From Laspinema palackyanum D2c (GTDB lineage: Bacteria; Cyanobacteriota; Cyanobacteriia; Cyanobacteriales; Laspinemataceae): 64,000 nt of DNA. The position numbers and the translations under genes are program-made. Where the stretch lies: contig NZ_JAMXFD010000019.1 in the NCBI RefSeq assembly GCF_025370875.1, forward strand, positions 1-64,000. Direction: 5' to 3'. Under the pieces are notes generated by a model. That model was given only the letters and a program-made list of their open reading frames with translations. It did no database searches and had not been told where the DNA came from. Shown here piece by piece: positions 23,304 through 56,949 of the stretch. Each line of letters begins with the position of its first letter. Position 1 is the stretch's first letter.

Positions 23304-23933
23304 TTAAGAACAAGGAACCGCTATAGAAGCCCAAGTTTCAATGGCCTTAATTAAGCAAGAAATAGAGACAACCCCGGACACAAATACCAGATGAGTGGGT
23401 ACAGATTTATCATGAAATTGTAATAAAATATCAACCACGAGAGCGTAACGAAACTCATTCTTGCTGAGGGTGAGAGATTCCGTCAGGGAAAGGAGGTGTT
23501 CAATATCGAAGGACGGAATAGAAAACGAAAGTTGTCGTTGAAGCATTTTGCTTAACATCCCTAAATAGGCATTTAAAACAACATTTCCGATTTCAGTGAG
23601 AATCTCACAATCTGACGCATCAAGGCGATGAGGGAGTATTTCCAAATTTTTTCTGAATAGATTAGACAACATCAAAGCATAGTAATAATCCACCAATAAC
23701 AGAGCATCACCGGTGATAGAACCCGTAAATAACTGATGAATTGTTGCAACTTGGTTCGGTAAAATTTCCGAAAATTCAGGACCTAATCCACTGAGTGTAT
23801 GAAGGGAAACATTAGAGACATGGACCACGACCGGGAAACCAATGAGTTCCGAAAGAGAGGCAGCTGTCCGTCGGGCTAAGGCCATTTGGGTAAATTCGGT
23901 TAATCCATTTTTTTGTGTTTCAGTCAGTAGCAT
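23304..23933 (-). CDS. cheC: CheC-like phosphatase of the chemotaxis operon
   Basis: CheC/CheX/FliY proteins dephosphorylate CheY-P. This 209-residue protein has one recognisable active-site set, ExxN followed by 22 residues and Pro (ILTEIGN...SIP, about residues 113-140). A second set, present in classical CheC, is not seen, so it is closer to single-site forms. It is the last gene of the minus-strand cheY-cheA-cheW-mcp-PAS/HEAT-cheR-cheB-cheC series, 300 bases after cheB, and could have its own promoter. The N-terminus (MLLTETQKNGLTEFTQMALARRTAASLSELIG) is typical of the family. Confidence 0.85.
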   Translation of the reverse strand: MLLTETQKNGLTEFTQMALARRTAASLSELIGFPVVVHVSNVSLHTLSGLGPEFSEILPNQVATIHQLFTGSITGDALLLVDYYYALMLSNLFRKNLEILPHRLDASDCEILTEIGNVVLNAYLGMLSKMLQRQLSFSIPSFDIEHLLSLTESLTLSKNEFRYALVVDILLQFHDKSVPTHLVFVSGVVSISCLIKAIETWASIAVPCS

Positions 23934-24233: not shown

Positions 24234-25292
24234 TTACAGCCGGTCAAGAATCGCCTGTGCCATGCAATCTAAGGTTAAAGAGCGGTCACTTAAGCCCGCT
24301 TCGACGACCGATCGCGGCATTCCGTAGACGATACAGCTTTCCTCCGCTTCGGTAAAAATGGATCCACCGCGAGATTTAATCCAAGCCGCACCCTGAGTGC
24401 CATCGGAACCCATCCCCGTCATCACCACCCCCAAAACGCGATCGCCAAACACCTCTGCGGCGGATTGAAACATCACATCCACCGACGGACGATGGAGGGT
24501 ATCGAAGGGGCGAGCATCCAGGTGCGTCCTCACTGTGCCATCACTGTGGCGAACAAACGTTAAATGCCGTCCGGCAGCGGCGATGAACACAACCCCGGGT
24601 TCGAGCAATGCCCCTTCCGAGGCTTCTACAACCTTCATCAACGACATCTCATTCAGTCGTTTTGCATACATGGAGGTATAACCCACAGGCATATGTAACA
24701 CGATCGCCACAGGCACTGGTAAATCCGCCGGTAACTGACCGACTAAAAAAGCCAGGGCCTGGGGTCCCCCGGTAGAAATCCCGATCGCCACGAGGTCCAC
24801 CACCCCAGATGAAGGGGAGGAAGGCATCACCTTACTCAATTGAATCGGACGTTCCGAGATCACCGGCAGACGATTCAAGGGAACATTGGCAGCCGCTTTC
24901 ACCTTTTCAATCAACTCATTGCTGATCTCAAAAATCTTTTCATTCGCCAACGCCGTCGGCTTTTGCAAAAAGTCAACAGCCCCAGCATCCAGTGCCGCGA
25001 GTACCTGTTCACCCCCTTCACTGGCAATACTAATAATCACCACGGGAAGCGGACGACGAGCCATTTGTTTTTGCAAAAATTCTACCCCGTCCATTTCGGG
25101 CATGATCAAGTCTAAAGTAACCACATCCGGGTTCAAAGTTTCGATCGCCTCCAATGCTTCCACTCCGTCTCGGGCCGTTCCCACCACTTCAAGAAATGGA
25201 GAACGGGATAACATTTGCTTGACCACCTTGCGGACATAAGCTGAATCATCCACTACCAACACTCGTACAACTTTCTTCATATCGCTCCCCAT
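24234..25292 (-). CDS. cheB: CheB chemoreceptor glutamate methylesterase
   Basis: Removes methyl groups from receptor glutamates and so provides adaptation together with CheR. The receiver domain carries phospho-acceptor Asp61 (TLDLIMPEMDG) and the Lys of FLQKP. A linker follows, then the esterase domain with the catalytic triad Ser173 (GISTGG), His200 (LHMP) and Asp297 (MTGMGSDG). The length of 352 residues is normal. An in-frame Met at residue 5 is an equally good start. It lies 128 bases after cheR. Presence of a full CheB indicates that the soluble receptor in this operon is meant to be reversibly methylated. Confidence 0.95.
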   Translation of the reverse strand: MGSDMKKVVRVLVVDDSAYVRKVVKQMLSRSPFLEVVGTARDGVEALEAIETLNPDVVTLDLIMPEMDGVEFLQKQMARRPLPVVIISIASEGGEQVLAALDAGAVDFLQKPTALANEKIFEISNELIEKVKAAANVPLNRLPVISERPIQLSKVMPSSPSSGVVDLVAIGISTGGPQALAFLVGQLPADLPVPVAIVLHMPVGYTSMYAKRLNEMSLMKVVEASEGALLEPGVVFIAAAGRHLTFVRHSDGTVRTHLDARPFDTLHRPSVDVMFQSAAEVFGDRVLGVVMTGMGSDGTQGAAWIKSRGGSIFTEAEESCIVYGMPRSVVEAGLSDRSLTLDCMAQAILDRL

Positions 25293-25420: not shown

Positions 25421-26311
25421 CTAACCTTTACTCGCTTTCTCCTTTACATAAACAAAAGCACCGCCAATTTCTCGCAAATCGAAATCGCTATTCAGTTTCA
25501 GCAGGGATTCAGAAGCCCCTAAAAATAAATAAGCGCGATTGGGCATCCTCTGGTAAAAATAATCAACAGTTTTCCGAATAGAATCCGGAGAAAAGTAAAT
25601 AAATACATTCCGGCAAAAAATGATATCCGCTTGACTGAACCGTTCAATTTCTGACTGATTCATTAAATTGGCAACATTCCATTGAATGCGTTTGTGCACA
25701 GACGAACAGACTTGCCAACCGAATTCTGATTTGGTAAAGTATTTCTCTTGGAGGGACTCCGGGAAGTTGCGAAAAGACCGCTCTCGATAAACCCCCGTTC
25801 GAGCTTTAGCGATCGCCCCATTAGCAGCATCCGATGCATACAATTCAATCGGTAAGCGTTCAAACCATCCCCCTTGCTCCAATGCCATCACAATCGAGAG
25901 AGGTTCTTCTCCCGTCGCACAAGCAGCACTCCAAATCCGCAGGGGTTTGGAAGAAAACGAGTAGGACCCCCCCGGGGTAAAAGTCCCTCGACGCTCCGCC
26001 AAATATTGGGGTAACAACACCTCAACGAGAGCCGTTAATGCATCGCTTTCTCTCCAAAAAAAAGTTTCCTGTACTGAAAGAACATCAATAACAGCCTTCC
26101 ACTCAGCCGTGGCGCTCGCATCGTATTTTAGCAGATAGTAATAATCTAAAAATGAATTCAACCCGCAATCAATCACGCGAGGCGTCAGCTTGTCTGCTAA
26201 AATTTCTCGCTTGTCATTTTCATAGAATAAACCCGCCCGTTCATGAATTAAATCTCGCAGAATAGTAAAAACACTATCCGTCAACTGTAAAGGCTGTGGA
26301 AAAAATCTCAT
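25421..26311 (-). CDS. cheR: CheR chemoreceptor methyltransferase
   Basis: SAM-dependent methylation of receptor glutamates. The family region begins at the Met at 26311 (MRFFPQPLQLTDSVFTILRDLIHERAGL, 296 residues). The frame is open to an earlier Met at 26368. The N-terminal helical domain is followed by the SAM-binding motif RIWSAACATGEEPLSI (around residue 125), then DIIFCRNVFIYF and LFLGASESL. No TPR extension is present, unlike the second CheR at 58.3 kb. It precedes cheB. Between it and the upstream PAS-HEAT gene is a 500-base spacer with heptamer repeats. Confidence 0.95.
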   Translation of the reverse strand: MRFFPQPLQLTDSVFTILRDLIHERAGLFYENDKREILADKLTPRVIDCGLNSFLDYYYLLKYDASATAEWKAVIDVLSVQETFFWRESDALTALVEVLLPQYLAERRGTFTPGGSYSFSSKPLRIWSAACATGEEPLSIVMALEQGGWFERLPIELYASDAANGAIAKARTGVYRERSFRNFPESLQEKYFTKSEFGWQVCSSVHKRIQWNVANLMNQSEIERFSQADIIFCRNVFIYFSPDSIRKTVDYFYQRMPNRAYLFLGASESLLKLNSDFDLREIGGAFVYVKEKASKG

Positions 26312-26811
26312 GGCTAGAATATAAAAATAGACAAATCTTTCATGAGACGCAACATCCCGGACTTTCATTAATTGCTGTATATCGAAAACGATCGAAAGCT
26401 TTCAGGGGGGAATGAGATCAAACAGAGCAGAAACCCCGAATAGGCCCAAACACTTCGGACTCATACCAAATCCGGTTGTCTCAAGTCGGTTTTCGTATAA
26501 GAACCCAGCGTAGGCCGGCTAATTTCACAAACCCCTGAGCTTTTCTATAACGAAACTGCACTTTAGAGTGCGGGTTTTTACAGACCTATCAGTACCGAAT
26601 TTAGGATCAGGAGTAGCTCTTTTGTCAAGACACCCGATGGTTTTCCCTGCAAGAACCTACCCCCGGCTAAGCCGAAAATTGCCCCGAGATTGGAAAAACC
26701 AATGGCCAATGACGGTTCTTTGTTATTTGTTATTTGTCCTTTGTTATTTGTTCTTAATCCAGGAACCAATGACCAGTGACCAACGACCAGTGACCAATGA
26801 CCAGTGACCCA
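26312..26811. repeat. PAS-HEAT / cheR spacer with heptamer arrays
   Basis: Two heptamer tracts lie head to head: five TTTGTTA-type units at 26719-26753 and six AATGACC/AGTGACC-type units at 26768-26809. The second ends two bases before the stop codon of the PAS-HEAT gene. The rest (26312-26700) has no recognisable gene and could hold an internal promoter for cheR. Confidence 0.75.
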
Positions 26812-29800
26812 TCAGCTTTGCAGAACCTTACGGGCAGCGCGACGAACCGTAGTATCCGAATCAGTCCGGGCCAAAATCACTAACTTATCCTCACAGGCAT
26901 GGTTGCCGAGATGCCCCAGGGCGGTAACTGCGGCAAGGCGGACATGAGGATCACTATCATCCAGAGCCAAAATCAACAATTCAGATGCCTCTGGATGCTT
27001 CAAGCGGGTGAGAATTTCCACTACGGCGGTGCGGACAGCAGGATGGACATGGCGTAGACCCCGACCGATCGCCTCAATATAAGCCTCAATGGAAACAATC
27101 CCGGAATGCTCTCGGGAATGCTTGAGGCGGTTGCTCTGATGGGTCCCGCCACGGGTGGCTAAGGTTTGAATGCAGGTATCCCGGCAGGTCGGGTCCACGG
27201 TCAAATCCAGCAGTGAGGCCACAGCGGAGGGTGTCCCCATGCGCGCGAGGGAGTCGATCGCCGCTGTGACCACCCGGGTCTCTGGGTCGGCGGCCCCCAA
27301 CCATTGCAGTGCAACTCCGGCTTCTGTGCCACCGCGCTCTTTAAAAGCTTGCAAGGCATCCAGACGCCGTTCTGCCTGGGGCGAATTCAAGGCATTTAAG
27401 AGGGGCGCGAGGGCGCTGGGATGCTCAATCCGCCCCAAGGCGCGTAAGGCGGCCCGGACCAAATCCTCATCCTGCCCGTCTTCTTCGGCGATCGCAGCTA
27501 AAATCGGCACGGCTTTGTCTGAACCCCAATAACCCAAAGCCTCGGTGGCTGAAGCCCGCACGGGAAAAGCCGGGTCGTGCAAGGCTAAATTTTGGAGAAT
27601 CTCAAACAAATCAGGGGTCTGACTGATGGCCGATCGCCGGGATTCTTCCCCCTCTCTCTGGGTATGGGTGAGCTTAGAGGTGGCGGATACGGCATAGTAT
27701 CGAACCCAAGAATCTTCGTCGGCGAGTGCTTCCAACAAATATTCATAAGCGGCGAGATGTTCAATTTCCCCGCAAGCCCGAGCTGCGGCAGCCCGGACTG
27801 TGGGGGTGTCTTGACGGAGGGCTTGTTGGAGCACTCCCAAGGCCCGTTCTTCTTGCTCTAAATAAGGCAGATGCTCGATGGCCGCGCGCCGCACTCGTTC
27901 TTCTGGGTCCTGGCAGAGTTGAAATAAGAGGTCGATGCAGTTGGGATAGGCAAAATATCCGGCTATTTTAATGGCGGATTCTCGGACATAAGGATTCTCG
28001 TCTTTAATCAGGGTCAAGACTCGTTCCGGCATGGCGGGATGGCCGAGGGAGTTGAGGGCGGCGATGGCCCCGAGGCGAACGGAAACTTCGTGATGACCCA
28101 ATAACCCAATCAGGGCTTCATAGGAGGAGCGATCGCCGATTTGCGCTAGGGCATTGGTGGTAATCATCACCAATTCGGATTCGGTATGGAGCAACTGAGC
28201 CATTAATGCCGGAACCGCTTTCTGGCTGCCAATTCTGCCGAGGGCGACGATGGCGCAGGAGCGAGTGTCCAAATCCTCGGCATCCAGTTGGGCAATCAGC
28301 AGTTCGGCGGCTGAAGGACCGTGGCGGACTAATGCTTCTAGGACTATCTCCCGCACGGACGGTTCAGACAGCAGTTCGGCCAGGGTTTCGGCAATGGCGG
28401 GACCTTCTAACCAACCCAAAATCTGGGCTAGGGCGGATAGTTCTGGGGGGTTGGCCCCTTTTAAGGCGAGGATGAGATGATTTTGGCCCTGGGGGGAGAT
28501 GTGGGCGCGGGTGAGGTCGGCGACGTGAATGCCTTCCCCAAAGAGGGTTTGATAGCGGTGGTAAATGGCGTTGATGGCTACGGCAATTTCTTTGATGGGC
28601 TGGTGGGGTTGGTTTAATAAGAGAGCTAGGGGCTTAACGACATCGGCATCCCCCAGTTGACCGAGGGCATCGGCGACTTGGGGGCCGAGGAGTTCGTTAT
28701 GCTCCAAGAGCAGGGCGAGTCTGGGGGCAATGGTGCGATCGCCGATGCGAGTCAGGGCATCGATGGCGGGAAAGGCGAGGAAGAAATCATAAGATTCCGC
28801 GAGGGCCAATAAGGGTTCGACGGCATCTACGGCGCGCAACCGCCCCAGGGCTTCGATGGCGTGATAAATGACGTTGGTATCTGGGTCGTTGAGGACTTCG
28901 ATGAGGGCGGGAATGGCCCGGGCATCGTGACGTTCTCCTAGGGCGAGGGCGGTATAAATTCGCAGGTCTGGGTCTTCATCTTTGAGGCATTCCACGAGGG
29001 AGGGAATGGGGTCTACATCGCTGAGGACGAGGATTTGGAGAACGCTGTTGAGGACGTTGGGGTTGCGGTGTTGTTCGCGCAACATTCGCAGGAGTTCGAT
29101 GGCGATCGCTGGGTCATTTTGTTGGGCCAAGTTATCCACGGCTTCACGACGGACCCGCCAACTCAGGGTATTTTTGAGCAGGGGGAGCAGACGGGGGGCG
29201 ATGGCGGTGTCGCAAATCCGCATCAGGGCATCCAGGGCCGGGAAGGCGAGGAAGAAATCATTGGATTCAGCGATCGCCACGAGGGGTTCCACGGCTTCTT
29301 GGGAGCGTAACTGACCCAAGGCATCAATGGCGTGATAACGGACATTGGCATTGATATCCCCTAAGGCTGCAATTAGAGGGAGAACGGCTCTAGGGTCCGC
29401 CCGTTCTCCCAGGGCGAGGGCGGCATAAATGCGTAAGTCCGGGTCTTCATCTTTGAGACATTCCACTAAGGCCGGGATCATATCCACATCCGAGGCGGCT
29501 AAGACCTGAAGGACGCCATTGAGGACCCCGGGATTGCGATGTTCGTTTCGCAGGAGTTGTAATAGTTCCGAAGTGAGGTTGGGGTCGCTATCGATGGAGA
29601 GGCGATCGACTGCTTCCCGTCGCACTTGCCAATTTTTATCCTGTAAGGCTTGCAAGATGGGATGTAGAGGTCCCGAGTAAGTGCCGTCATCCGATCGCCA
29701 GTCTGGGGATTCTTCCGACGGTGAGGCTTCTGGGGGGGAATCTCTTAGGGCCGAAGGTCGCGTGAGTCTTCTTTCTTGTTCTCGTTCCTGCTCTAGGCGA

Positions 29801-30144
29801 GGGGTGACATCTTCAATGGTGACGATGGTCCCGACCACGCGCTCTTTGTCCCGCAGGGGACCAATGGTCACCCGCTGCTGCATATACTCGAAATATTTGG
29901 AGGGGACTAAGGGAGGACAGGGGATGAGGTAGTGGTGTAATGCCGGGGCCAGGGTTTCCACGACTCCTTCACTGAGCACCCGCTCAAACCGAGTGGCAAA
30001 TCCCCGGGATAAGAAGTCGGGAGCCAAGGTGGTTAAATGGAGTCCGACGGCGGTTTCTCCACTGAGTCCCGTCATCTGCGCTAGACGGGGGTCCCAGGTC
30101 CGCACAATCAGATTGGTGTCCGTTGTAAAAATGCTAATGGTCAT
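26812..30144 (-). CDS. PAS domain plus HEAT-repeat protein in the chemotaxis operon
   Basis: The start was set at ATG 30144 (1110 residues), because the frame further up to 30282 translates heptamer DNA. A PAS domain occupies about residues 5-115 (ISIFTTDTNLIVRTWDPRLAQMTG to GTIVTIEDVT). A charged linker follows, then roughly 25 HEAT/PBS-lyase-type repeats (DEDPDLRIYAALALGER...) to the C-terminus. Within these, two ungapped 157-residue units lie in tandem at 29631-29161 and 29160-28690. No catalytic domain or membrane segment is present, so a scaffold that reads a ligand or redox state through PAS is inferred. It sits between the receptor and cheR genes, all on the minus strand, which ties it to this pathway. 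Confidence 0.85.
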   Translation of the reverse strand: MTISIFTTDTNLIVRTWDPRLAQMTGLSGETAVGLHLTTLAPDFLSRGFATRFERVLSEGVVETLAPALHHYLIPCPPLVPSKYFEYMQQRVTIGPLRDKERVVGTIVTIEDVTPRLEQEREQERRLTRPSALRDSPPEASPSEESPDWRSDDGTYSGPLHPILQALQDKNWQVRREAVDRLSIDSDPNLTSELLQLLRNEHRNPGVLNGVLQVLAASDVDMIPALVECLKDEDPDLRIYAALALGERADPRAVLPLIAALGDINANVRYHAIDALGQLRSQEAVEPLVAIAESNDFFLAFPALDALMRICDTAIAPRLLPLLKNTLSWRVRREAVDNLAQQNDPAIAIELLRMLREQHRNPNVLNSVLQILVLSDVDPIPSLVECLKDEDPDLRIYTALALGERHDARAIPALIEVLNDPDTNVIYHAIEALGRLRAVDAVEPLLALAESYDFFLAFPAIDALTRIGDRTIAPRLALLLEHNELLGPQVADALGQLGDADVVKPLALLLNQPHQPIKEIAVAINAIYHRYQTLFGEGIHVADLTRAHISPQGQNHLILALKGANPPELSALAQILGWLEGPAIAETLAELLSEPSVREIVLEALVRHGPSAAELLIAQLDAEDLDTRSCAIVALGRIGSQKAVPALMAQLLHTESELVMITTNALAQIGDRSSYEALIGLLGHHEVSVRLGAIAALNSLGHPAMPERVLTLIKDENPYVRESAIKIAGYFAYPNCIDLLFQLCQDPEERVRRAAIEHLPYLEQEERALGVLQQALRQDTPTVRAAAARACGEIEHLAAYEYLLEALADEDSWVRYYAVSATSKLTHTQREGEESRRSAISQTPDLFEILQNLALHDPAFPVRASATEALGYWGSDKAVPILAAIAEEDGQDEDLVRAALRALGRIEHPSALAPLLNALNSPQAERRLDALQAFKERGGTEAGVALQWLGAADPETRVVTAAIDSLARMGTPSAVASLLDLTVDPTCRDTCIQTLATRGGTHQSNRLKHSREHSGIVSIEAYIEAIGRGLRHVHPAVRTAVVEILTRLKHPEASELLILALDDSDPHVRLAAVTALGHLGNHACEDKLVILARTDSDTTVRRAARKVLQS

Positions 30145-30380
30145 GGGTCTTATGTCCTTGGTTGTTGGTCCTTGGTTGTTGGTCGGGGGTCTGATGGGGT
30201 GGGTCGTTGGTTTTTGGGGGTTGGTCTGATGTTTTATGTTGGGGGTTCTTTGATTGATAAAAAAGGACAAAAGGACGGTCACGGGTCACGGGTTGTGGGT
30301 CACGGGTTGTTGGTTCTTTGATTAAGAACATAAGACATCAGACCAACGACATCAAACATCAGACCCTCCGCCGATGTTCT
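30145..30380. repeat. Heptamer-rich spacer between receptor and PAS-HEAT genes
   Basis: TTGGTTG/TTGGTCC units at about 30160-30190 and GGGTCAC/GGGTTGT units at about 30280-30320 fill most of this spacer. The mirror types (GACCAAC, GACATCA) appear near 30335-30360. The tract begins directly at the PAS-HEAT start codon. Confidence 0.7.
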
Positions 30381-32477
30381 TCATCTTGCGGTTCCGTTGA
30401 TGGAATCGGCGATCGCGCTTAAATTAATGGCTCGTTCTACTAAGGAGGATGTGGCCCGTTGGGTTTCTTTGACCCCGCGAGCGTTCCATTCGGCAATTTC
30501 CCGCAGTTGTTGGAATGCCCTCAGAAGGGTTTCCGAGACTGAGGAATGCTCTTGATTAGCATGAACCATAGATTCAATCTGGGAAGAGATGGTCTTTAAG
30601 GTCTGAGTCATTTCTCGGATAGCGCGGGATTGTTCAGTCATGGCGCGGGCGACTTGCTCGGATTGCTGTTGCAGATTTTGGACTGCGGTGGCAATGAAAT
30701 CGCTGGCACTGCCTTGTTCCACCATTCCTCGGGAAATATTAGAAATCAAGCGGGCCAGACGGGCGGATTCTTGAGAGACTTGTTCTCCGGCGGTGGACTG
30801 TTGGGCCAGGGCGCGAGAGGTGCTGGTAGCGGCACGGCGCATGGCTTCGACGGCTTGGACGATTTGATTGGCTCCTTTGGCTTGTTCGGCGGTGGCTTTG
30901 CGAATTTGGCTGGTGAGTAGGGAGGTATTTTGGGCGGCTTTCATGACATCTCGGGCACCCCGGGCTTGTTCGCTCATGGCTTTGGTGACTTCCATGGCGA
31001 TTTTCCGCATTTGTCCGGCGGCGGTGACGATGTTTTGAGCGGTTTCGGATTGTTCGGCGGTGGCGAAGGCGACTTGTTTGGCTTGACTGGCGGTGGTATC
31101 GATGGCGGTGACGACGGCAAGTCCGGCCCCGAGTTGTTCTTCCGAGGCGCGGGTAATTTGGGCGACGAGTTGGGCGGTTTCTTCAATGCCGCTGAGGATT
31201 TGTTTGAGGGCATTGACGCCATCTTCGGCGAGACGTCCGCTATCATCGGCGACTTTTAAGCCTTCGTTGGAGGTGTTGACGGCTTCACCGACGACGGTTT
31301 GGAGGCTTTTGATGATGGTGCCGATTTCGGAGGTGGCGGTGGCGGCGCGATCGGCCAGGGCGCGAATTTCTTCAGCAACGACGGCGAATCCCCGTCCGGC
31401 TTCTCCGGCTCTAGCGGCTTCGATGGAGGCATTGAGGGAGAGGAGGTTGGTGCGTTCGGCGATGAGGTTGATGGTATCAACGATGGTGCTGATTTCGTCG
31501 GTGCGTTTGCCGGTTTCGCGGATGGCGGAGGCGGATTTGACCATTGAGGCGCGCACCAGGTTGAGTCCGGCGATGGTTTTTTGGACGGTGGCCCCGCCGA
31601 CGGTGGCATCAGCGGCGACTTTGCGGGTGATTTGGTTGGTTTGTTGGGTGAGAGAGGAGACGTTGCGGATGGAGCGATCGAGCTGTTCGGCGCTGGTGGC
31701 GGCACTGGTGGCGGCGTCGGTGATTTCTTTGCTGTTGAGGGCGACTCCTTGGACGGAGCGGGCCATTTCTTCTATGGAGACGGAGACTTGCTCGACCATT
31801 GCGGCGAGGTTTTCTGAGGTGGCGGAGACTTGTTCAATGGAGGCGGCCATTTCATCCATTGCGGAGGTGGTTTGGGAGGCGGCGGTATTGAGGTCGTCGG
31901 CATTCAGGGCGACGCCGGAGATGGAACTGGTGATTTGTTCAATGGAGGCGGCGGTTTGATTGATGGCGGAGGCGAGCTCATCGGTATCGCGACTGACGCT
32001 TTTGATGGAGGCGGCCATTTCTCCCATTGAACTGGTGAGTTGGGTGCTGGAGGTGGCCATTTCTTCGGTGGTGGCGCTGACACTTTTGATGGAACTGGCG
32101 GTTTCCTGGATATTGGTGGAGATTTCGGAGATTTCCGTGGCAAGACTGACGGTGCTGGCGGTGACTTGCTCGATGGAGGCGGCCATTTCGTTGACAAAGG
32201 AGACGAGTTCTTCGCTATTGGTGGCCACGGTACTGGCGAGGGTGGCGGTTTGTTGCAAAGAGGTGACCATTTGGTTGAGGGCAACGGTGCTTTCATCCAG
32301 GGAGCGAATTTGTTTGATGGCTCCGGTGGAGACATCCTCGGCAATCCGCGAAATTTCATGGGCGGATTCGGTCATCTGTACGGAGGATGACTGAATTTTG
32401 CTCAGGTCCGATTTATGGAAGATTTTGCTGGGTTTAGTTTTGGTTTTGGGGTTAATTTTAGGGTCTTTTTTAGCCAT
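30381..32477 (-). CDS. Soluble, sensor-less methyl-accepting protein with expanded 28-residue repeats
   Basis: A 698-residue receptor made almost wholly of signalling coiled coil. No membrane segment, HAMP, PAS or GAF domain is seen. Residues 1-30 are a Lys/Pro-rich basic tail. The kinase-control hairpin ([37 protein letters not shown], about 342-378) is canonical. Eight 28-residue units run from 68 to 291 (consensus [17 protein letters not shown]...), and seven from 446 to 641 (each starting near A/S/T-E-Q). Both sets end about 285 residues from the tip, so the two arms stay matched. Membrane-free receptors usually sit in cytoplasmic arrays. It lies between cheW and the PAS-HEAT gene, suggesting that PAS-HEAT or another partner provides the sensing part. 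Confidence 0.92.
31605..32276 (-). repeat. Eight 84-bp coding repeats of the receptor N-terminal arm
   Basis: The DNA repeats with an 84-base period, seen as recurring GGAGGCGGCCATTTC-like segments on the plus strand. It encodes the eight 28-residue (four-heptad) units. The units have diverged but show no gaps. Confidence 0.85.
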
Positions 32478-32577: not shown

Positions 32578-33051
32578 TTAGATGGGGTGGGGGGTTAAGG
32601 GTTCGATTGATGGTGAGTGGTTTAAGAGTTGGTCAATGTTGAGCAGGAGAATTACGCGGTCTTTTAGGGTGGCAATTCCTGAGAGGTAACGGCTGGTCCA
32701 CCCCGGCATTTCTTCTGGGGGGGGTTGGATGGACTCCGGGGGTACGCAGACGAATTCCCGGGCGGTATCGACGATTAAACCAATGGTGCGCTGATTGATG
32801 TGAATGACTATTAAGCGGGTGCTGCAGTTATAGGGAATTTTTTCGAGTCCAAATTTGACCCGCAAGTTGACCACGGGAATGACTTGTCCGCGCGAAAAGA
32901 CGACGCCTTCAACGAAAGGCTGGGTTTTGGGCACTGGGGTAATGTGGTCAATCATTTCCATTTGCTGGACGATGGGGGAGGGGATGGCGTAGGTGGTGTG
33001 GGCTAGTTCAAAGAAGATAAAGGTGGAGTTGGGGTTGGGTGGGTTGGTCAT
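32578..33051 (-). CDS. cheW: CheW adaptor protein
   Basis: Couples receptor and CheA kinase in the signalling array. The protein is a single CheW domain of 157 residues: FIFFELAHTTYAIPSPIVQQMEMIDHITPVP, then GVVFSRGQVIPVVNLRVKFG, then TIGLIVDTAREFVCVPPESIQPPP and an ILLLNIDQLL end. It lies 23 bases beyond cheA and 100 bases before the receptor gene, consistent with one transcript. The N-terminal Asn/Pro stretch and C-terminal Pro-rich tail lie outside the domain. Confidence 0.93.
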   Translation of the reverse strand: MTNPPNPNSTFIFFELAHTTYAIPSPIVQQMEMIDHITPVPKTQPFVEGVVFSRGQVIPVVNLRVKFGLEKIPYNCSTRLIVIHINQRTIGLIVDTAREFVCVPPESIQPPPEEMPGWTSRYLSGIATLKDRVILLLNIDQLLNHSPSIEPLTPHPI

Positions 33052-33074: not shown

Positions 33075-35309
33075 TTAGGAGGTGCGGTGGGGTTGGGGAT
33101 GATGGGCTCTCATAAGGGCGGGGGCATCGAGAATGAGGATGACTCGACCATCGCCGATTTCGGTGGCTCCAGAAATGCCGAGGACTTGAACGAGGGGGTC
33201 ATTGAGGGGGCGCACGACGATTTCCCGTTGTCCGATGATGCGATCGACGGCTATGCCGACGGTATTGGGTCCGCTACTGACGATGACGACTCGCCAGTTC
33301 GAGGCGATCGCCCGAGTGTAAGAAGGGGCGTGTTGCTGGGGTATTCCGGTGAACAGGGCCGAGTGGGGTGAGGATGGGGTGGGGGCAGAGGCAGTGGAGT
33401 CCGGCGGCACAGGGGGCTCGCCGGGGGTGGATTCTGTGGGGATTAAGTTAAAGAGGGATTCTAGGCGCAGCAGGGGAATGATTTTCCCTCGGTAGGGAAT
33501 CATCAGGGTTTGTTCAAAGACGGTGATGGCCTCCGCTGGCAGGGCGATCGCCTCGCGCACAGAGCTGGCACTGATGGCGTAGGTTTCTGGGCCCAGGGAG
33601 AGCAGCAGGACATCGGCGATCGCCAAGGTGAGGGGGAGTTCAATGATAAATTTGGTTCCTTGCCCGGTGTGGGTTTCCAGGGTCAGGGTGCCCCCTAGTT
33701 CCTGGAGGGTATTTTTAACGATCGCCATCCCCACTCCCCGACCACTGGCTAAATCGGCGACTTCTCGGGTGGAAAAGCCAGGGGTGCACAGAATTTCGAG
33801 CAGGGTGGTGGGGTCCTCTGGTTGAGGGTTCAGATGGGGATGGGGACGCTGGGGTAAGAGGTTCTGGGATGAGGCTTTTTGGAGGATTTGGGGCGAATGA
33901 ATGCCTCGGCCATCATCTTCAACTTCGATGATCACCATTTCTCCACAGGTTTTGGCGCGCAGGGCGATTTTTCCGGTGGTGGGTTTGCCCGCTTGAAGTC
34001 GCTCTTCGATGGTTTCTAAGCCATGACTGACAGCATTTCGGACCAGGTGCAACAGGGGGTCCATCATCCGCTCGACGACAAATTTATCGATTTCCGTTTC
34101 TTGGCCGCTGAGTTCAACTTGGACCTGTTTGGGGGTTTCCCGCACCAGGTCGCGCACCACAAATTGCATCCGGGCAAAGATTTCCCCGATGGGGACTAAG
34201 CGAACTCGCATCACCCCTTCTCGGAGGTCCCGGAGTTGGCGTTCTAGGATTTGGTTGATTTCGACCAGGGGGCGCAGGTGATTGACCGGGAGTTGTTCTT
34301 GGAGGTGGGTGAGCTGATTGGACAGTCGCGATCGGGTGATGACTAAATCGCCCATGATTCGCATCAGTTCATCGAGTTTGGGGAGGTCTACTCGCACCAC
34401 GTTGGAGCTTTGGGAAATTAATGGGGCGGCGATGGGAGGAGAAATCGGGGTGGGTTGCCCGGGCCCAGGGGAAACCGGATCAGGCTCATTGAGAGGAGCG
34501 GTTTCTGGGGACTGGGGTATCGTGGGGTTGGGGGATTCTGCCTCAGGGTGAGGGTTTTTTTCCGAGGCGAGATAGGGAGCCCAGGTGAGTCCGTCATTTT
34601 CCCAGCCGATAAAGGTGTTGGGGTTCAGAGCATTGACCAGGAGAAAGTCAAAGGCGATTTTTCCCTCTGGGGTCATCCGAGGTGCGGCATAAATTAATTC
34701 GCCCAGACTTTGGAGGCGATCGCGGATTTTGTTGACGTTGATGCCATTAGTGGAGAGTTGCTGCGTGGGGGTAAAAATAAAGTGCCAAGCTTGAACCCCG
34801 GGGGTCTCTGTGGCCCGCTGCAAACGGGTGATGTCTTCGGCTTTGAGTTGCAGGGCGGCTACGGGGGCGGATTGTTCCACTGCACCGGCTTTTTCCGTTT
34901 GGGGAGTGACAGCCTTTAAGGCGGCCACGATCTGGCTAATATCCGGAGAGGGCTTTTCATGGCGATGGGCGGCGATGGTTTGCTCTAGCCCTTTGGTCCC
35001 TCCCAACAAGGCATCAAATCCTTCAGGACTCAGGATAACTTCCTGGTCTCGCAGCACCCGCAAGTAGCTCTCCATCTCATGGGCAAGTTCCTCGGCTTCT
35101 TTGACTCCCACCATGCCGGATAATCCTTTGAGGGAATGAAAGCTCCGAAACAGTTCGTTCAAAACACTCCGCTCAATTCCAGCTTTCCCCACAAACGGCT
35201 CGATCTCCAATAACTCTCGCCGCACTACGGTTAAGTGGTCTTCGCATTCAGCAAAGTAGTCTTCTAAGAAATCTTTAAAAAAATTTTTAGGGTCTGGGTG
35301 GGTGGACAC
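33075..35309 (-). CDS. cheA: CheA histidine kinase
   Basis: Central kinase of the pathway; passes phosphate to CheY and CheB. Order: P1 (Hpt) with His58 (FRSFHSLKG), a P2-like region (about 150-245), a Pro/Ser-rich linker (about 250-305), the P3 dimer helices (VVRVDLPKLDELMRIMGDL), P4 ATPase (N-box NAVSHGLE, DDGRGI, GRGVGMAIVKNTLQELGG) and the P5 CheW-like domain. No C-terminal receiver is attached, unlike the hybrid CheA proteins common in cyanobacteria. The 744-residue frame has no gaps. It follows cheY by 105 bases and precedes cheW by 23. The conserved Asp in GMD(V/I)VK is Ala here (GMAIVK), a minor variation. Confidence 0.95.
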   Translation of the reverse strand: MSTHPDPKNFFKDFLEDYFAECEDHLTVVRRELLEIEPFVGKAGIERSVLNELFRSFHSLKGLSGMVGVKEAEELAHEMESYLRVLRDQEVILSPEGFDALLGGTKGLEQTIAAHRHEKPSPDISQIVAALKAVTPQTEKAGAVEQSAPVAALQLKAEDITRLQRATETPGVQAWHFIFTPTQQLSTNGINVNKIRDRLQSLGELIYAAPRMTPEGKIAFDFLLVNALNPNTFIGWENDGLTWAPYLASEKNPHPEAESPNPTIPQSPETAPLNEPDPVSPGPGQPTPISPPIAAPLISQSSNVVRVDLPKLDELMRIMGDLVITRSRLSNQLTHLQEQLPVNHLRPLVEINQILERQLRDLREGVMRVRLVPIGEIFARMQFVVRDLVRETPKQVQVELSGQETEIDKFVVERMMDPLLHLVRNAVSHGLETIEERLQAGKPTTGKIALRAKTCGEMVIIEVEDDGRGIHSPQILQKASSQNLLPQRPHPHLNPQPEDPTTLLEILCTPGFSTREVADLASGRGVGMAIVKNTLQELGGTLTLETHTGQGTKFIIELPLTLAIADVLLLSLGPETYAISASSVREAIALPAEAITVFEQTLMIPYRGKIIPLLRLESLFNLIPTESTPGEPPVPPDSTASAPTPSSPHSALFTGIPQQHAPSYTRAIASNWRVVIVSSGPNTVGIAVDRIIGQREIVVRPLNDPLVQVLGISGATEIGDGRVILILDAPALMRAHHPQPHRTS

Positions 35310-35414: not shown

Positions 35415-35783
35415 TTAATGAGTTAGCAAATCATGAACTTGACTTGAAAGGGAGCGAGGTTCAAAGGGTTTGGTTAAATAACAGGCTGCTCCCGCTTGGA
35501 TGGCTTCACTCCGACTGCCTTCATCCCCTTTAGTGGTTAAAATTACAATGGGTGTTGCATTATAGCTGGGATGCCCCAGGACGAATCTCAGCACTTCCAA
35601 CCCATGCATATCCGGCATATTCAAATCTAAAATCATTAAATCGAAGGGAGCAACCGCTAGTTGTTCGATCGCTTCTAGTCCATTCCCTGCTTCTTGAAAG
35701 GTCACGTTGGTTAAATCTCGCAGGGATGCGATTACCATTTTTCTCATCGTAGCGGAATCATCCACAACTAAAATCCGTTTCAT
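35415..35783 (-). CDS. cheY: CheY response regulator
   Basis: A stand-alone receiver of 122 residues, first gene of the chemotaxis operon. Acidic pocket DD (residues 8-9), phospho-acceptor Asp53 (MILDLNMPDMHG), switch Thr (ILTTKGD, about 83-84) and Lys105 (LTKPF) are all present. No DNA-binding domain, so output is by protein contact, for example with the pilus or secretion motor in a gliding filament (inference). A strong ribosome site, AAGGAGGA, lies seven bases upstream. It is dephosphorylated in principle by the CheC-like protein at the end of the operon. Confidence 0.95.
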   Translation of the reverse strand: MKRILVVDDSATMRKMVIASLRDLTNVTFQEAGNGLEAIEQLAVAPFDLMILDLNMPDMHGLEVLRFVLGHPSYNATPIVILTTKGDEGSRSEAIQAGAACYLTKPFEPRSLSSQVHDLLTH

Positions 35784-53708: not shown

Positions 53709-55157
53709 TTAAACCACGGACTTTAGATGCAAAGCGGCTTCTTTCAGTCGTTGGGTGCCAATTTTGACCTGAGTAATCCCCGTGGCACTTTGGGAAGCGC
53801 CTTGATTCAGGTCGTTCATCGCCGTGAGAACTTGCTGGATGGCAGTGGCTTGTTCTTTGCTATTGAGCGAGATTTGGGAGACATTAACGGCGACTTGATT
53901 AATGGCATTTCGCACCCCTTCAAAGGTGGCGGCAGTTTCCCCAACGATGCGGATACCTTCAGCGACGCTTTCGGAACTTTCGCCACTGGCGAGGACGGTG
54001 GATTTGAGGGCTTTTTCGATGTCGGTGACGAGGAGATTGATTTTTTCGGCAGATCGATGACTCTGATCGGCTAATTTGCGAATTTCCGTAGCAACGACCC
54101 CAAATCCTTTGCCTTGTTCTCCGGCGCGAGCTGCTTCTACGGCTGCATTGAGAGCGAGCACGCGGGTTTGACTAGCTAAATCACTAGCGAGTCCGGCGAT
54201 CGCACCAATTTGATTGGCTCGTTGGCTCAATTCATCCACCCGCGATCGCATCACCCCTACGGTGTGATTGAGTTTGGTCATTTCCTCCAGGGTGCGATCG
54301 ACCGCTTGAGTCCCGGATCCAGTCAGGGTGAGGGCTTGTTTGGCCCCAGTCGCCGAGGCGATCGCTTGATCAGCCGCTTGAGCAGCAGACCGATTTAATT
54401 GTTCCATTGCGATACTGGTTTGATGTACGGATCCTGCTTGCTGTTGGGCAATCTGTTCCTGTTCTGTGGTGGCGCTGGCAATTTGAGTGGAGGTGCTCGC
54501 CAGAGTATTGATGATATCGGTCAGGGTCGCGGCGATCGCCCCTCGGATAATCGCAAAACCCAGGGGTGAACCAATCAATAAAGCCAGGGACAACAAGGGA
54601 ATAAAAATAATTTGCGTGCGTTGGTACACCTCGGCTGCTTTTTCCCGTTCTTGTTGGGCAATTTCCAACTGTAAATTAATTAACTCACTGATTTTCTCCG
54701 TGAGCGGGTCAATCACGTTATAGAGATAGCCATTAAATTCGCTGACACTCGCCCGGTCTCCAGTCTGCAAAGCCAGTTGGAGACGTTCAATATCGCGATC
54801 GGCACGAATGAACAATTGCTCCACTTCCCGAATCAGTCTGACCTCCTCGGGAGTGAGTTGAGTCCCTTGATAAGCCTGCCAGTTGTCTTCTATGCGATCG
54901 CGAGCAGTTCTCACCGATTGGAACGCCTGTTCCATTGTCCACAAGCCCTGATCCGCCTTATTCACCGCATCAATCACCGAGATTCCGTAATCATCAGAAA
55001 TTACCTTTAACTGCTGTAACGGCACGACGCGATCATCATAAATCGTTTCGACTTGTCGGTCGATATTGGCAAAAGAAATTAGGGAATAAATCCCTAACCC
55101 GGCCAAACACAGGGTAGGAATCGCGAATCCTATATAAAGCTTTCGCCCTAACCTCAT
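53709..55157 (-). CDS. Methyl-accepting chemotaxis protein with extracytoplasmic four-helix sensor
   Basis: A transmembrane chemoreceptor. The start was set at Met 55157 ([26 protein letters not shown], 482 residues); an earlier in-frame Met at 55214 adds a polar stretch. TM1 is at about residues 7-27, the helical sensor at about 30-180, and TM2 at about 189-210. A distinct HAMP is not seen. The signalling hairpin is canonical ([36 protein letters not shown]). The last gene of the minus-strand cluster, it follows a receptor with a degenerate tip. No CheA is in this cluster, so it must use one encoded elsewhere. Confidence 0.92.
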
Positions 55158-55214
55158 ATTTTTAGTCCTCAAATTGGGGATGCACTGAGACTCTGTTAAA
55201 TCGGCACTCAGCAA

Positions 55215-55623
55215 CGGTTCACCTGATAATTCTGGTTTTACCTTAGCCTCAACTTGCTTGTTTTGCCTTGGTCCAGAGTATCTAGTGATACCTAAAGTCT
55301 AATCTTTCCCGTTTCGATGCGGGATCGGTTTAAAGGTTCCTGGGAGGGTTCGCTCCTTGAAGGAGGCGCTCATTCCCGGTGGAAACGCGCTGTATCGTGC
55401 AGGGGTCCAAATCAGCAACGGACAAGGGCTTGAGGTCCAGGGACCGGGATACAGTTCTGTGCTGGGAAAAGAGAGAAAACCGAGTTATCAAAAAGGCGAT
55501 CGCTACCCAATCCCGGAAGAAAAAGATGCACCCTGCTTTGGGGCTAAAAATTAGGAATAACGGCTGAAGTTGAAGAGTTAAACGGGACCAAATGAGTTGA
55601 AATGCTCCCAACCAAGAATCGGG
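55215..55623. other. Gap between the two receptor genes
   Basis: No supported gene. Short opposing frames at 55330-55611 and 55357-55567 lack features. A promoter for the downstream receptor gene probably lies near 55215-55300, but is not resolved. Confidence 0.4.
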
Positions 55624-56949
55624 TTATAAAAGGTCAAACAACTGATGAGCGTCACGGTTGAGTTTTTGAAGGCGGATTTTAGTTTCGCTTAAAGTCTGAG
55701 TCGTTTCCCGAGCGCTTTGAGCGGGAGATTCCAGGGCATCAAACACCTGTTGAATCGCCGTAGCTTGCTGCTGACTTGCCTTGGAAATAGCCCGAGTCTG
55801 GATTGCCAGGTCAGCGATCGCACTCCAAATCGGTTCCACATTGGGCTCGGATTCTTCCAGTTCAATCGCCACAGCATGGGGTTCAATTTTGAGTTGAGTG
55901 ACTAGGGTATTGACTTGCTTGGCGGATTTTTTGGTTTCGTTAGCTAAGGTTCGCATTTTTGTCGCCACGGCCTCCAGACAGTGACATTCCAATCCCGGTC
56001 GTTGGGACTCAACCCCGGCATGAAGTGCTAACAGATTGGTTTGAGAGGCTAAATCCGTCACCCGATGGGTGAGTCCATAGATTTTGCCCAAATGACCTCT
56101 GAAAGAGAGCATTTTATCTTCTATTTGGGCGACTTGAACCTGGGTGGATTCGAGCTCTTGAGCATGGAGACTAGCGGATTGGGTTAAGCTTTCCAGGACG
56201 GTGTTGATTTGACTCAAGTCAGCAGATTGATGAGTCGAGAGGCTTTCACTGACTAAGATGTTATGGGTGATTTCCTTAGCGGTAGATTGGAGGGACAGCA
56301 GGGGATGGGCGATCGCCTCGACAATTCGATAAGTCCAGGCTGTAGAAATAGCCAGGGTGAACAAAACTAAAACCACACTCCCCACCCACACCCACTCATT
56401 TAATGCCATGAGCGCAAGATGAGTGCCATCGGCCTTAGACCCTTGAATCTGGTTCTGAACCGCCAGAAAATCCTCCAGCGCTTGGGTGATTTCTAGGGAA
56501 AGATTATGACTTTCCGCCGCTGCAAACGCCCTCATGGCTTGGTCTCTTTTTTGAGTTTGGGTTAAAGTCATCAAATATCGATTCAAACTATCGATTTGAT
56601 TTCCTAACTCTTTGATTTTATCTAAGCGAATTTGCAAATCTGGATTTTCAATCTGGCCATTCAGGGACTCAATGGCCTCTTCAAATAATTGAGATTTTTT
56701 TTCGTATTCAACTAAAAAATCACCTTCGGGATTGACTAAAAAGCTGGCACTATAACGCTGCATCTGGGAAAGGCCAGAAACCATACGTTCCGAGTTGTCC
56801 AGGATTTGTTGTCCTGCTGCATCGGTATCCAGTATTTGTTGGAGGGTCTGGGTCTGGCAGGAAATCCCGGCGGCAAAGCCAAGGGACAGCAATAACGGCA
56901 CTGAATATCCCAGTAAAATACGGGTTTTTAGTTTTAACGGGTTGAACAT
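55624..56949 (-). CDS. MCP-like receptor with degenerate kinase-control tip
   Basis: A receptor-like protein of 441 residues. TM1 lies at about 10-30, a helical sensor with four-helix look at about 35-175, and TM2 (EWVWVGSVVLVLFTLAISTAW) at about 185-205. The coiled-coil domain follows. Its tip reads NLLALHAGVESQRPGLECHCLEAVATKMRTLANET instead of the near-invariant [16 protein letters not shown] pattern. Asn is His, the AARAGE is SQRPGL, and the GRGF is gone. The protein may not control CheA and could act as a decoy, heteromer partner or separate sensor. It lies between the double-CheW and the normal receptor gene. Confidence 0.85.
   Translation of the reverse strand: MFNPLKLKTRILLGYSVPLLLSLGFAAGISCQTQTLQQILDTDAAGQQILDNSERMVSGLSQMQRYSASFLVNPEGDFLVEYEKKSQLFEEAIESLNGQIENPDLQIRLDKIKELGNQIDSLNRYLMTLTQTQKRDQAMRAFAAAESHNLSLEITQALEDFLAVQNQIQGSKADGTHLALMALNEWVWVGSVVLVLFTLAISTAWTYRIVEAIAHPLLSLQSTAKEITHNILVSESLSTHQSADLSQINTVLESLTQSASLHAQELESTQVQVAQIEDKMLSFRGHLGKIYGLTHRVTDLASQTNLLALHAGVESQRPGLECHCLEAVATKMRTLANETKKSAKQVNTLVTQLKIEPHAVAIELEESEPNVEPIWSAIADLAIQTRAISKASQQQATAIQQVFDALESPAQSARETTQTLSETKIRLQKLNRDAHQLFDLL

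What the first reader, a model, noticed from the sequence alone, without database searches (positions are those of the whole stretch)
30381..32477. Soluble chemoreceptor built of matched 28-residue repeats in both coiled-coil arms
The protein has no sensor or membrane part. By direct alignment, residues 68-291 hold eight ungapped 28-residue units and residues 446-641 hold seven. Each unit equals four heptads, and both sets end 285-288 residues from the hairpin tip. The two arms together would hold about 90 heptads, far above the 24H-64H classes usually described. A matched expansion implies selection for a much longer signalling rod, and a way to add units in both arms while keeping register. 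The unit consensus differs between the arms ([10 protein letters not shown] against A/S/T-EQ-x-x-GA).
Basis: partly seen in the sequence, partly recalled or inferred. Interest (0 to 1): 0.78.

Follow-up and report, generated by a model that had tools for sequence, protein, structure and literature searches.

The report
Extra-long chemoreceptor of paired repeat modules
A bacterial chemoreceptor is built about one and a half times longer than the longest standard class by repeating a 28-residue module in matching positions on both arms of its hairpin, and the same receptor, with a conserved rod of fixed length, sits in a private signalling gene set shared by distantly related bacteria.

Summary
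Window 30381-32477(-) is a 698-aa soluble MCP with 28- and, more strongly, 56-residue periodicity in both arms, beyond what heptad composition gives. Heptad phase runs unbroken to both ends and AF2 is helical from 19 to 696: about 96 heptads, against 64H as the largest named class.
The unit is not private to this protein. Counted from the tip, an N-arm motif and a C-arm EQ motif face each other at 88+28k residues: seven levels in this family (27-41 of 41 sequences each), up to four in ~64H-type receptors, at most one in ordinary ones; a single pair fell at any other heptad phase. So rods may grow by a paired module; this is the longest iteration seen here.
Homologues do not gain or lose units: 41 distinct sequences from four phyla have no gap between residues 59 and 659 (one is cut by a contig end).
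The cassette RR-CheA-CheW-MCP-PAS/HEAT-CheR-CheB is whole in 26 of 36 loci. PAS-HEAT is the likely sensor (inferred). Seven of 41 homologues have a transmembrane helix; 29 of the other 34 have a basic tail, as in DNA-binding FrzCD.
New variant of a known kind.

The parts
30381..32477 (-). soluble MCP, 698 aa, about 96 heptads (48 per arm)
32376..32477 (-). basic N-terminal tail, residues 1-34, net charge +7
31605..32276 (-). N-arm 28-residue units, residues 68-291 (8 units; the strict pairing motif is met by 7 levels)
31401..31403 (-). hairpin tip glutamate E359 (AGE-AGR)
30555..31142 (-). C-arm 28-residue units, residues 446-641 (7 units; a degenerate eighth may follow to residue 669)
26812..30282 (-). 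PAS + HEAT-repeat protein, proposed sensor/adaptor (start by homology near 30144)
32578..33051 (-). CheW
33075..35309 (-). CheA (Hpt, dimerisation, ATPase, CheW domains)
35415..35783 (-). single-domain response regulator (CheY-like)
25421..26368 (-). CheR methyltransferase
24234..25292 (-). CheB methylesterase with receiver domain
23304..23933 (-). CheC/CheX-like phosphatase: no Pfam match itself, but homologous to cassette proteins that reach the CheC or CheX cut-off

Best explanation
This is a methyl-accepting chemoreceptor of about 96 heptads, 48 per arm, whose four-helix rod is lengthened by iterating a 28-residue module (four heptads per arm, eight per hairpin) that occurs as a facing pair in the two arms. 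Shown by sequence: the periodicity, the facing positions, the unbroken heptad register, the fixed length of the conserved rod across four phyla, and the conserved cassette. Inferred: that the rod (about 50 nm at 1.05 nm per heptad pair) forms a normal dimer and trimer of dimers that drives its own CheA/CheW baseplate at the tip; that the PAS-HEAT protein brings the signal to the far, open end of the rod, since the receptor has no sensor; that CheR/CheB and the CheC-like protein reset it; and that the array is held by the membrane in the transmembrane members and by the basic tail, on acidic lipid or on DNA as in FrzCD, in the soluble ones. Output through the CheY-like regulator would be to surface motility, as most named hosts are gliding filaments (recalled knowledge).
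For: Periodicity against a register-keeping null, lags 28 and 56 in both arms. Hydrophobicity averaged over 41 sequences keeps one 3.5-residue phase, between -7 and -42 degrees in windows off the tip, from residue 15 to 686; the two most hydrophobic register positions are 0 and 4 modulo 7 in both arms, which fits a/d layers paired about 359. AF2 gives helix 19-696, with gaps at 188-193, 357 and 520-522. Facing motif pairs at 88+28k: 38, 40, 39, 41, 33, 27, 37 of 41 at k = 0-6, none at the other three heptad phases. In 11 other long receptors: 7, 9, 10, 5 of 11 at k = 0-3, none at other phases. In 27 further measured receptors (two of them already among the 11) pairs again fall only at this phase. 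No gap between 59 and 659 in 41 sequences, L073 cut at 623. The 18 members put into a tip tree form one clade, 100/99. Seven genes in the same order and strand in 26 of 36 loci; HEAT protein in 33 of 36. Basic tail in 29 of 34 soluble members.
Against: The AF2 model is weak (mean pLDDT 72, pTM 0.29) and breaks both arms at matching places, 188-193 and 520-522, so a single straight rod is not shown by it. The ends are poorly conserved (mean identity 0.28 at 40-67, 0.29 at 656-683, 0.19-0.26 beyond), so 96H may overcount. By the strict motif there are seven levels, not eight (0 of 40 at k = 7). The pairing motif was read off this protein before it was scored, and its N-arm half is less specific than the C-arm half (24 of 41 also at distance 207, 20 of 41 at 130). 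Among six ~64H-length receptors new, three have four strict pairs but the other three have 0, 1 and 1, though their C-arm motif is in phase at two or three levels. A mirror test of hydrophobicity peaked at a sum of 697 (r 0.56), not at the tip-centred 718 (0.44), though both have the same heptad phase; one on conservation put the tip-centred offset first but weakly (r 0.14 and 0.18). Lengths of the two arms over members correlate only 0.38. Three of 24 ordinary receptors also exceed z = 2.5 at lag 28 in the N window. No binding evidence links PAS-HEAT to the receptor, and two loci (L059, L121) have the receptor without it. No dimer was modelled.
Confidence: 0.65

Rival explanations
1. It is an ordinary 64H-type signalling hairpin with extra coiled-coil stretches at both ends that do not form part of the hairpin.
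For: Conservation falls toward the outer ends; AF2 breaks both arms at about 161-171 residues from the tip; four ~64H-type receptors (L127, L128, L130, L131) align in one ungapped piece to the inner 417-438 residues only.
Against: Heptad phase shows no slip out to residues 15 and 686. Motif pairs beyond the 64H limit (k = 4-6) are in phase in 33, 27 and 37 of 41. Outer blocks 68-151 keep 0.49-0.54 mean identity. The two sides of the tip are near equal in length (358 and 340 residues).
Confidence: 0.17
2. The repeats are only the low-complexity habit of coiled coils and mean no module.
For: Many multiples of seven score well in plain self-comparison.
Against: Shuffles that keep the heptad register give z of 4.0-5.5 at lags 28 and 56 but not at 14, 35 or 42, in 39 members alike; the C-arm motif sits at one of four heptad phases only in this family.
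Confidence: 0.03
3. [quoted passage not shown]
For: Cytoplasmic receptors, and even cytoplasmic fragments of membrane receptors, form such sandwiches with plates about 30-35 nm apart (PMC3964821, abstract and passages). No membrane part in 34 of 41.
Against: Homologues with the same rod are membrane-anchored (7 of 41), and most soluble ones carry a basic tail at the end that would face the sandwich centre, where like charges would repel (inference).
Confidence: 0.25
4. The rod itself senses a cytoplasmic state (ions, redox, crowding, DNA) and the PAS-HEAT protein is a side regulator, for example of CheR/CheB.
For: The HEAT gene lies between MCP and cheR; two loci have the receptor without it, and L114 has a HEAT protein in which no PAS part aligned.
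Against: A HEAT protein is in 33 of 36 loci across four phyla; PAS is a common sensor fold (recalled).
Confidence: 0.25

Closest known systems
64H class of MCP signalling domains
   Same: 28-residue periodicity in 11 of 11 long Acidobacteriota receptors and facing motif pairs at 88+28k from the tip. Four of the 11 align in one ungapped piece over the inner 417-438 residues; others align in shifted pieces. My 64H assignment rests on length: L131 has 225 residues from HAMP end to tip and 226 from tip to end.
   Different: Up to four paired modules instead of seven. Of four scanned, two have HAMP, one a fused solute-binding domain, one only the MCP domain; none of those fetched is in this cassette.
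FrzCD of Myxococcus xanthus
   Same: Cytoplasmic, no obvious sensing domain, positively charged N-terminal 30 residues (PMC12077210, abstract and passages).
   Different: FrzCD has two HAMP domains and ends its signalling domain at residue 417; M. xanthus MCPs are 40H or 44H (PMC3945109, passage). DNA binding of the present tail is untested.
Cytoplasmic arrays of Rhodobacter sphaeroides and Vibrio cholerae
   Same: Soluble receptors with CheA/CheW (PMC3964821, passages).
   Different: Plates about 30-35 nm apart, so far shorter receptors.
Solved MCP signalling domain 2ch7 (Thermotoga maritima, class 44H, both recalled for this entry)
   Same: Best sequence match among solved structures, over residues 217-491.
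   Different: Does not cover the outer arms, where the one listed best stretch (89-247) is to a designed coiled coil, 8qae.

Membership tests
Methyl-accepting chemotaxis protein (PF00015) | MCP signalling domain above the curated cut-off, with conserved tip | tested here: met
   130.1 bits against 34.6; tip region nearly invariant in the alignments
64H heptad class | 32 heptads per arm | tested here: not met
   About 48 per arm by phase and helix length, about 42 by the conserved ungapped rod alone
64H heptad class | match to the MiST 64H profile HMM | not testable with these tools
   Profiles are named in PMC6943060 (passages) but not held
Cytoplasmic (soluble) chemoreceptors | no transmembrane segment | tested here: met
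   This protein and 33 other members; 7 of 41 fail it, so it does not define the family
FrzCD type | basic N-terminal DNA-binding stretch | tested here: inconclusive
   Basic tail present (+7; 29 of 34 soluble members positive); DNA binding not testable
FrzCD type | two HAMP domains between tail and signalling domain | tested here: not met
   No HAMP match, unbroken heptad phase there
Adaptation-competent chemosensory system | CheR and CheB in the cassette and methylation-type sites in the rod | tested here: inconclusive
   CheR and CheB present. Five consensus sites (consensus recalled) in the N arm, but a register-keeping null reaches five in 59 of 1000 shuffles; pooled over 41 related sequences 192 against 74.7 expected

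The most novel reading that the evidence does not exclude
Chemoreceptor rods grow by copying one paired 28-residue bundle module in both arms at once, and the counts seen, about one, up to four, and seven, are stages of that process. The longest stage defines a new ~96H class with its own cross-phylum system, in which a PAS-HEAT protein replaces the built-in sensor and the rod is anchored either by a membrane helix or by a basic tail, perhaps on the nucleoid.
Probability: 0.35. Interest if true: 0.7.

Novelty: new variant of a known kind. Interest (0 to 1): 0.56.

Why it matters
Receptors of different heptad length tend to sort into separate arrays (passages in PMC3945109, PMC2577667 and PMC6628036). 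How one length class turns into another while two arms stay in register is, to my knowledge, not settled. A facing module with fixed phase gives a concrete unit for that change and a simple test by deletion. A conserved rod of one length over four phyla, beside a HEAT partner whose length varies, suggests that rod length itself is under selection. Receptor, partner and adaptation genes stay together, so a whole sensing system without a built-in sensor can be studied as one piece.

Tried and rejected
Methylation ladder: the five consensus sites looked strong against a plain shuffle (mean 0.54) but not against a register-keeping one (59 of 1000 reach it), so I do not claim it.

Ongoing gain or loss of units inside the rod: not seen in 41 sequences.

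An N-terminal sensor in L115 (871-codon open frame): rejected by eye, the stretch lies before the likely start and looks like a GC-rich frame outside the gene.

Placing the family inside the 64H-type receptors by a tip tree: unresolved, long branches (18 of 41 members used).

Arm pairing by mirrored hydrophobicity or conservation profiles: the first did not peak at the tip-centred sum, the second did but weakly.

Fold search of the AF2 model was not run because the model is weak (pTM 0.29). The second structure job was not used.

Rows dropped before counts: L073 (cut by contig end) and L114 (short ends); identical sequences (45 to 32) and the second MCPs of L056 and L057 and L082-L084; L074 and L075 gave no frame; L019 left out of alignments A1, A3 and A4; L073 out of A5; L162 and L166 had no usable frame and L167 was a duplicate, where only the 30 loci returned of the matches listed were measured.

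Full report
What was checked. The ORF at 30381-32477 on the minus strand encodes 698 residues. Pfam finds only the MCP signalling domain above its cut-off, at residues 291-453. To ask whether this is more than the habit of coiled coils, I shuffled residues only among positions of the same heptad register. Lag 28 then has z of 4.0 and 4.3 and lag 56 z of 5.3 and 5.5 in the N and C arms, while 14, 35 and 42 do not stand out. In 39 members of the family, this one included, lags 28 and 56 exceed z = 2 in 97% to 100%.

How long the rod is. Averaged over 41 sequences, hydrophobicity keeps one heptad phase from residue 15 to 686, weaker only around the tip. AlphaFold2 on 26 sequences gives helix from 19 to 696, with gaps at 188-193, 357 and 520-522; the model is weak, pLDDT 72 and pTM 0.29. 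From tip E359 that is about 48 heptads per arm, or 96H. The well-conserved rod, 68 to 655, is 84 heptads; 40-67 and 656-683 keep only 0.28 and 0.29 mean identity, and the stretches beyond less. MiST 3.0 names classes from 24H to 64H (PMC6943060, passages). A geometric study notes that a few rare receptors appear longer than 32 paired heptads and sets them aside (PMC6628036, passages), so longer receptors as such are known.

What the unit is. Measured from the tip, each C-arm EQ motif lies opposite an N-arm [AS]-[ILVM] motif. At distances 88+28k both are present in 38, 40, 39, 41, 33, 27 and 37 of 41 members for k = 0 to 6 and in 0 of 40 for k = 7; at the other three heptad-locked phases no pair was seen, though the N-arm half alone occurs off phase, at most in 24 of 41. 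Eleven long Acidobacteriota receptors, not used to find the motif, show pairs in 7, 9, 10 and 5 of 11 at k = 0 to 3 and none at other phases; 24 ordinary receptors, of this genome and its relatives, show it in 11 at k = 0 and none further out, with one stray pair at another phase. A plain PF00015 search of eight genomes gave 30 loci, of which 27 were measured; two of these (L149, L152) are the same genes as L131 and L123 among the eleven. Of the six new ones with 224-227 residues after the tip, three have four strict pairs and three have 0, 1 and 1, while their C-arm motif is in phase at two or three levels; the twelve with 141-179 residues after the tip have at most one pair; no pair falls at another phase. 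The eleven long receptors also show the 28-residue lag in both arms (N z 2.2-4.1, C z 2.5-5.5), as do, in the N window only, three of 24 ordinary ones above z 2.5. L131 has HAMP to residue 357 and its tip at 582, so about 32 heptads per arm, which is why I call these 64H-type.

Homologues. Seventeen of 59 genomes, its own included, hold it; a pattern-led scan of one genome per species (84,980) returned 28 loci, one of them (L075) a weak match of another kind. By record titles they are Cyanobacteria, Chloroflexota, Acidobacteriota and the gammaproteobacterium Thioploca; many are MAGs. Strong hits, the centre genome included each time, were 6 of 386 genomes in the own phylum, 3 of 400 in Chloroflexota, 4 of 396 in Acidobacteriota and 5 of 42 in the order of Thioploca; at most seven candidates per genome were scored, so these are lower bounds. 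Forty-one distinct sequences, 41 to 98% identical to this one over the rod, have no insertion and no gap between residues 59 and 659, except L073, cut by its contig end. L114 is the shortest, 309 residues before and 318 after the tip against medians of 359.5 and 337, and sister to the other 17 members in a tip tree. Over members the two side lengths correlate only 0.38; most of that variation is in tails. The closest named genome, Laspinema palackyanum D2a, is 98% identical over the C arm.

Surroundings. The order RR, CheA, CheW, MCP, PAS-HEAT, CheR, CheB on one strand is complete in 26 of 36 loci. Of the ten others, six (L053, L061, L065, L072, L073, L074) are cut by contig ends; L059, L060, L120 and L121 lack a part in the stretch fetched. 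A HEAT protein is present in 33 of 36; L073 ends before it, and L059 and L121 have other genes there. By eye, 31 of those 33 keep the PAS part. Its open frame ranges from about 600 to 1150 residues, in contrast to the fixed rod. A CheC/CheX-like protein follows CheB in the window, with homologues in 21 of the 36 loci; the window copy has no Pfam match, but three homologues scanned reach the CheC or CheX cut-off. The genome holds 17 MCP domain matches and five CheA dimerisation domains.

Mechanism. Seven of 41 members have an N-terminal transmembrane helix by hydrophobicity; of the 34 others 29 have a net positive tail (start codons of some rows were chosen by eye). In FrzCD a positively charged N-terminal stretch binds DNA, the nucleoid serves as array scaffold, and no sensing domain is obvious (PMC12077210, abstract and passages). 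I propose, as inference, that the open end of the rod is anchored by helix or tail, that PAS-HEAT delivers the signal there, and that the tip drives its own CheA. A cytoplasmic double-plate array is the main rival (PMC3964821, abstract and passages). Of 21 cyanobacterial loci, 18 bear names of filamentous non-heterocystous groups; that these and Thioploca glide is recalled knowledge, and two MAGs carry names of unicellular genera.

Literature limits. Searches (listings) showed no title or abstract describing this receptor, cassette or paired module in the open library; passages only of the papers cited were read. Subscription papers, including the original heptad-class paper, were not seen.

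Noticed in passing
L127:5280-8363: A 64H-type MCP fused at its C end to a family 5 solute-binding protein (SBP_bac_5, 280 bits). L128 and L130 are of like length, and five more receptors run at least 605 residues past the tip, where the fetched stretch ends; none of these others was scanned.
   Followed up: no
26812-30282 and its homologues: The PAS part has a near-invariant cysteine in a YLIPCPP-like motif, in 32 of 34 rows by eye; in the two exceptions (L114, L117) no PAS part aligned.
   Followed up: no
residue 625 of the MCP family alignment: Six of the seven transmembrane members, and no other of the 41, have a proline in the outer C arm at residue 625.
   Followed up: partly
L059:10781-14092: In place of PAS-HEAT this locus has, on the opposite strand, what look like a PAS-type histidine kinase and a KaiC-family ATPase (the names are recalled, no family search).
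   Followed up: no
L119:7071-7988: A PD-(D/E)XK-family transposase gene sits between the receptor and PAS-HEAT genes.
   Followed up: no
53709-56949: Two more MCP genes in the window, with a four-helix-bundle sensor and a CHASE3 domain.
   Followed up: no
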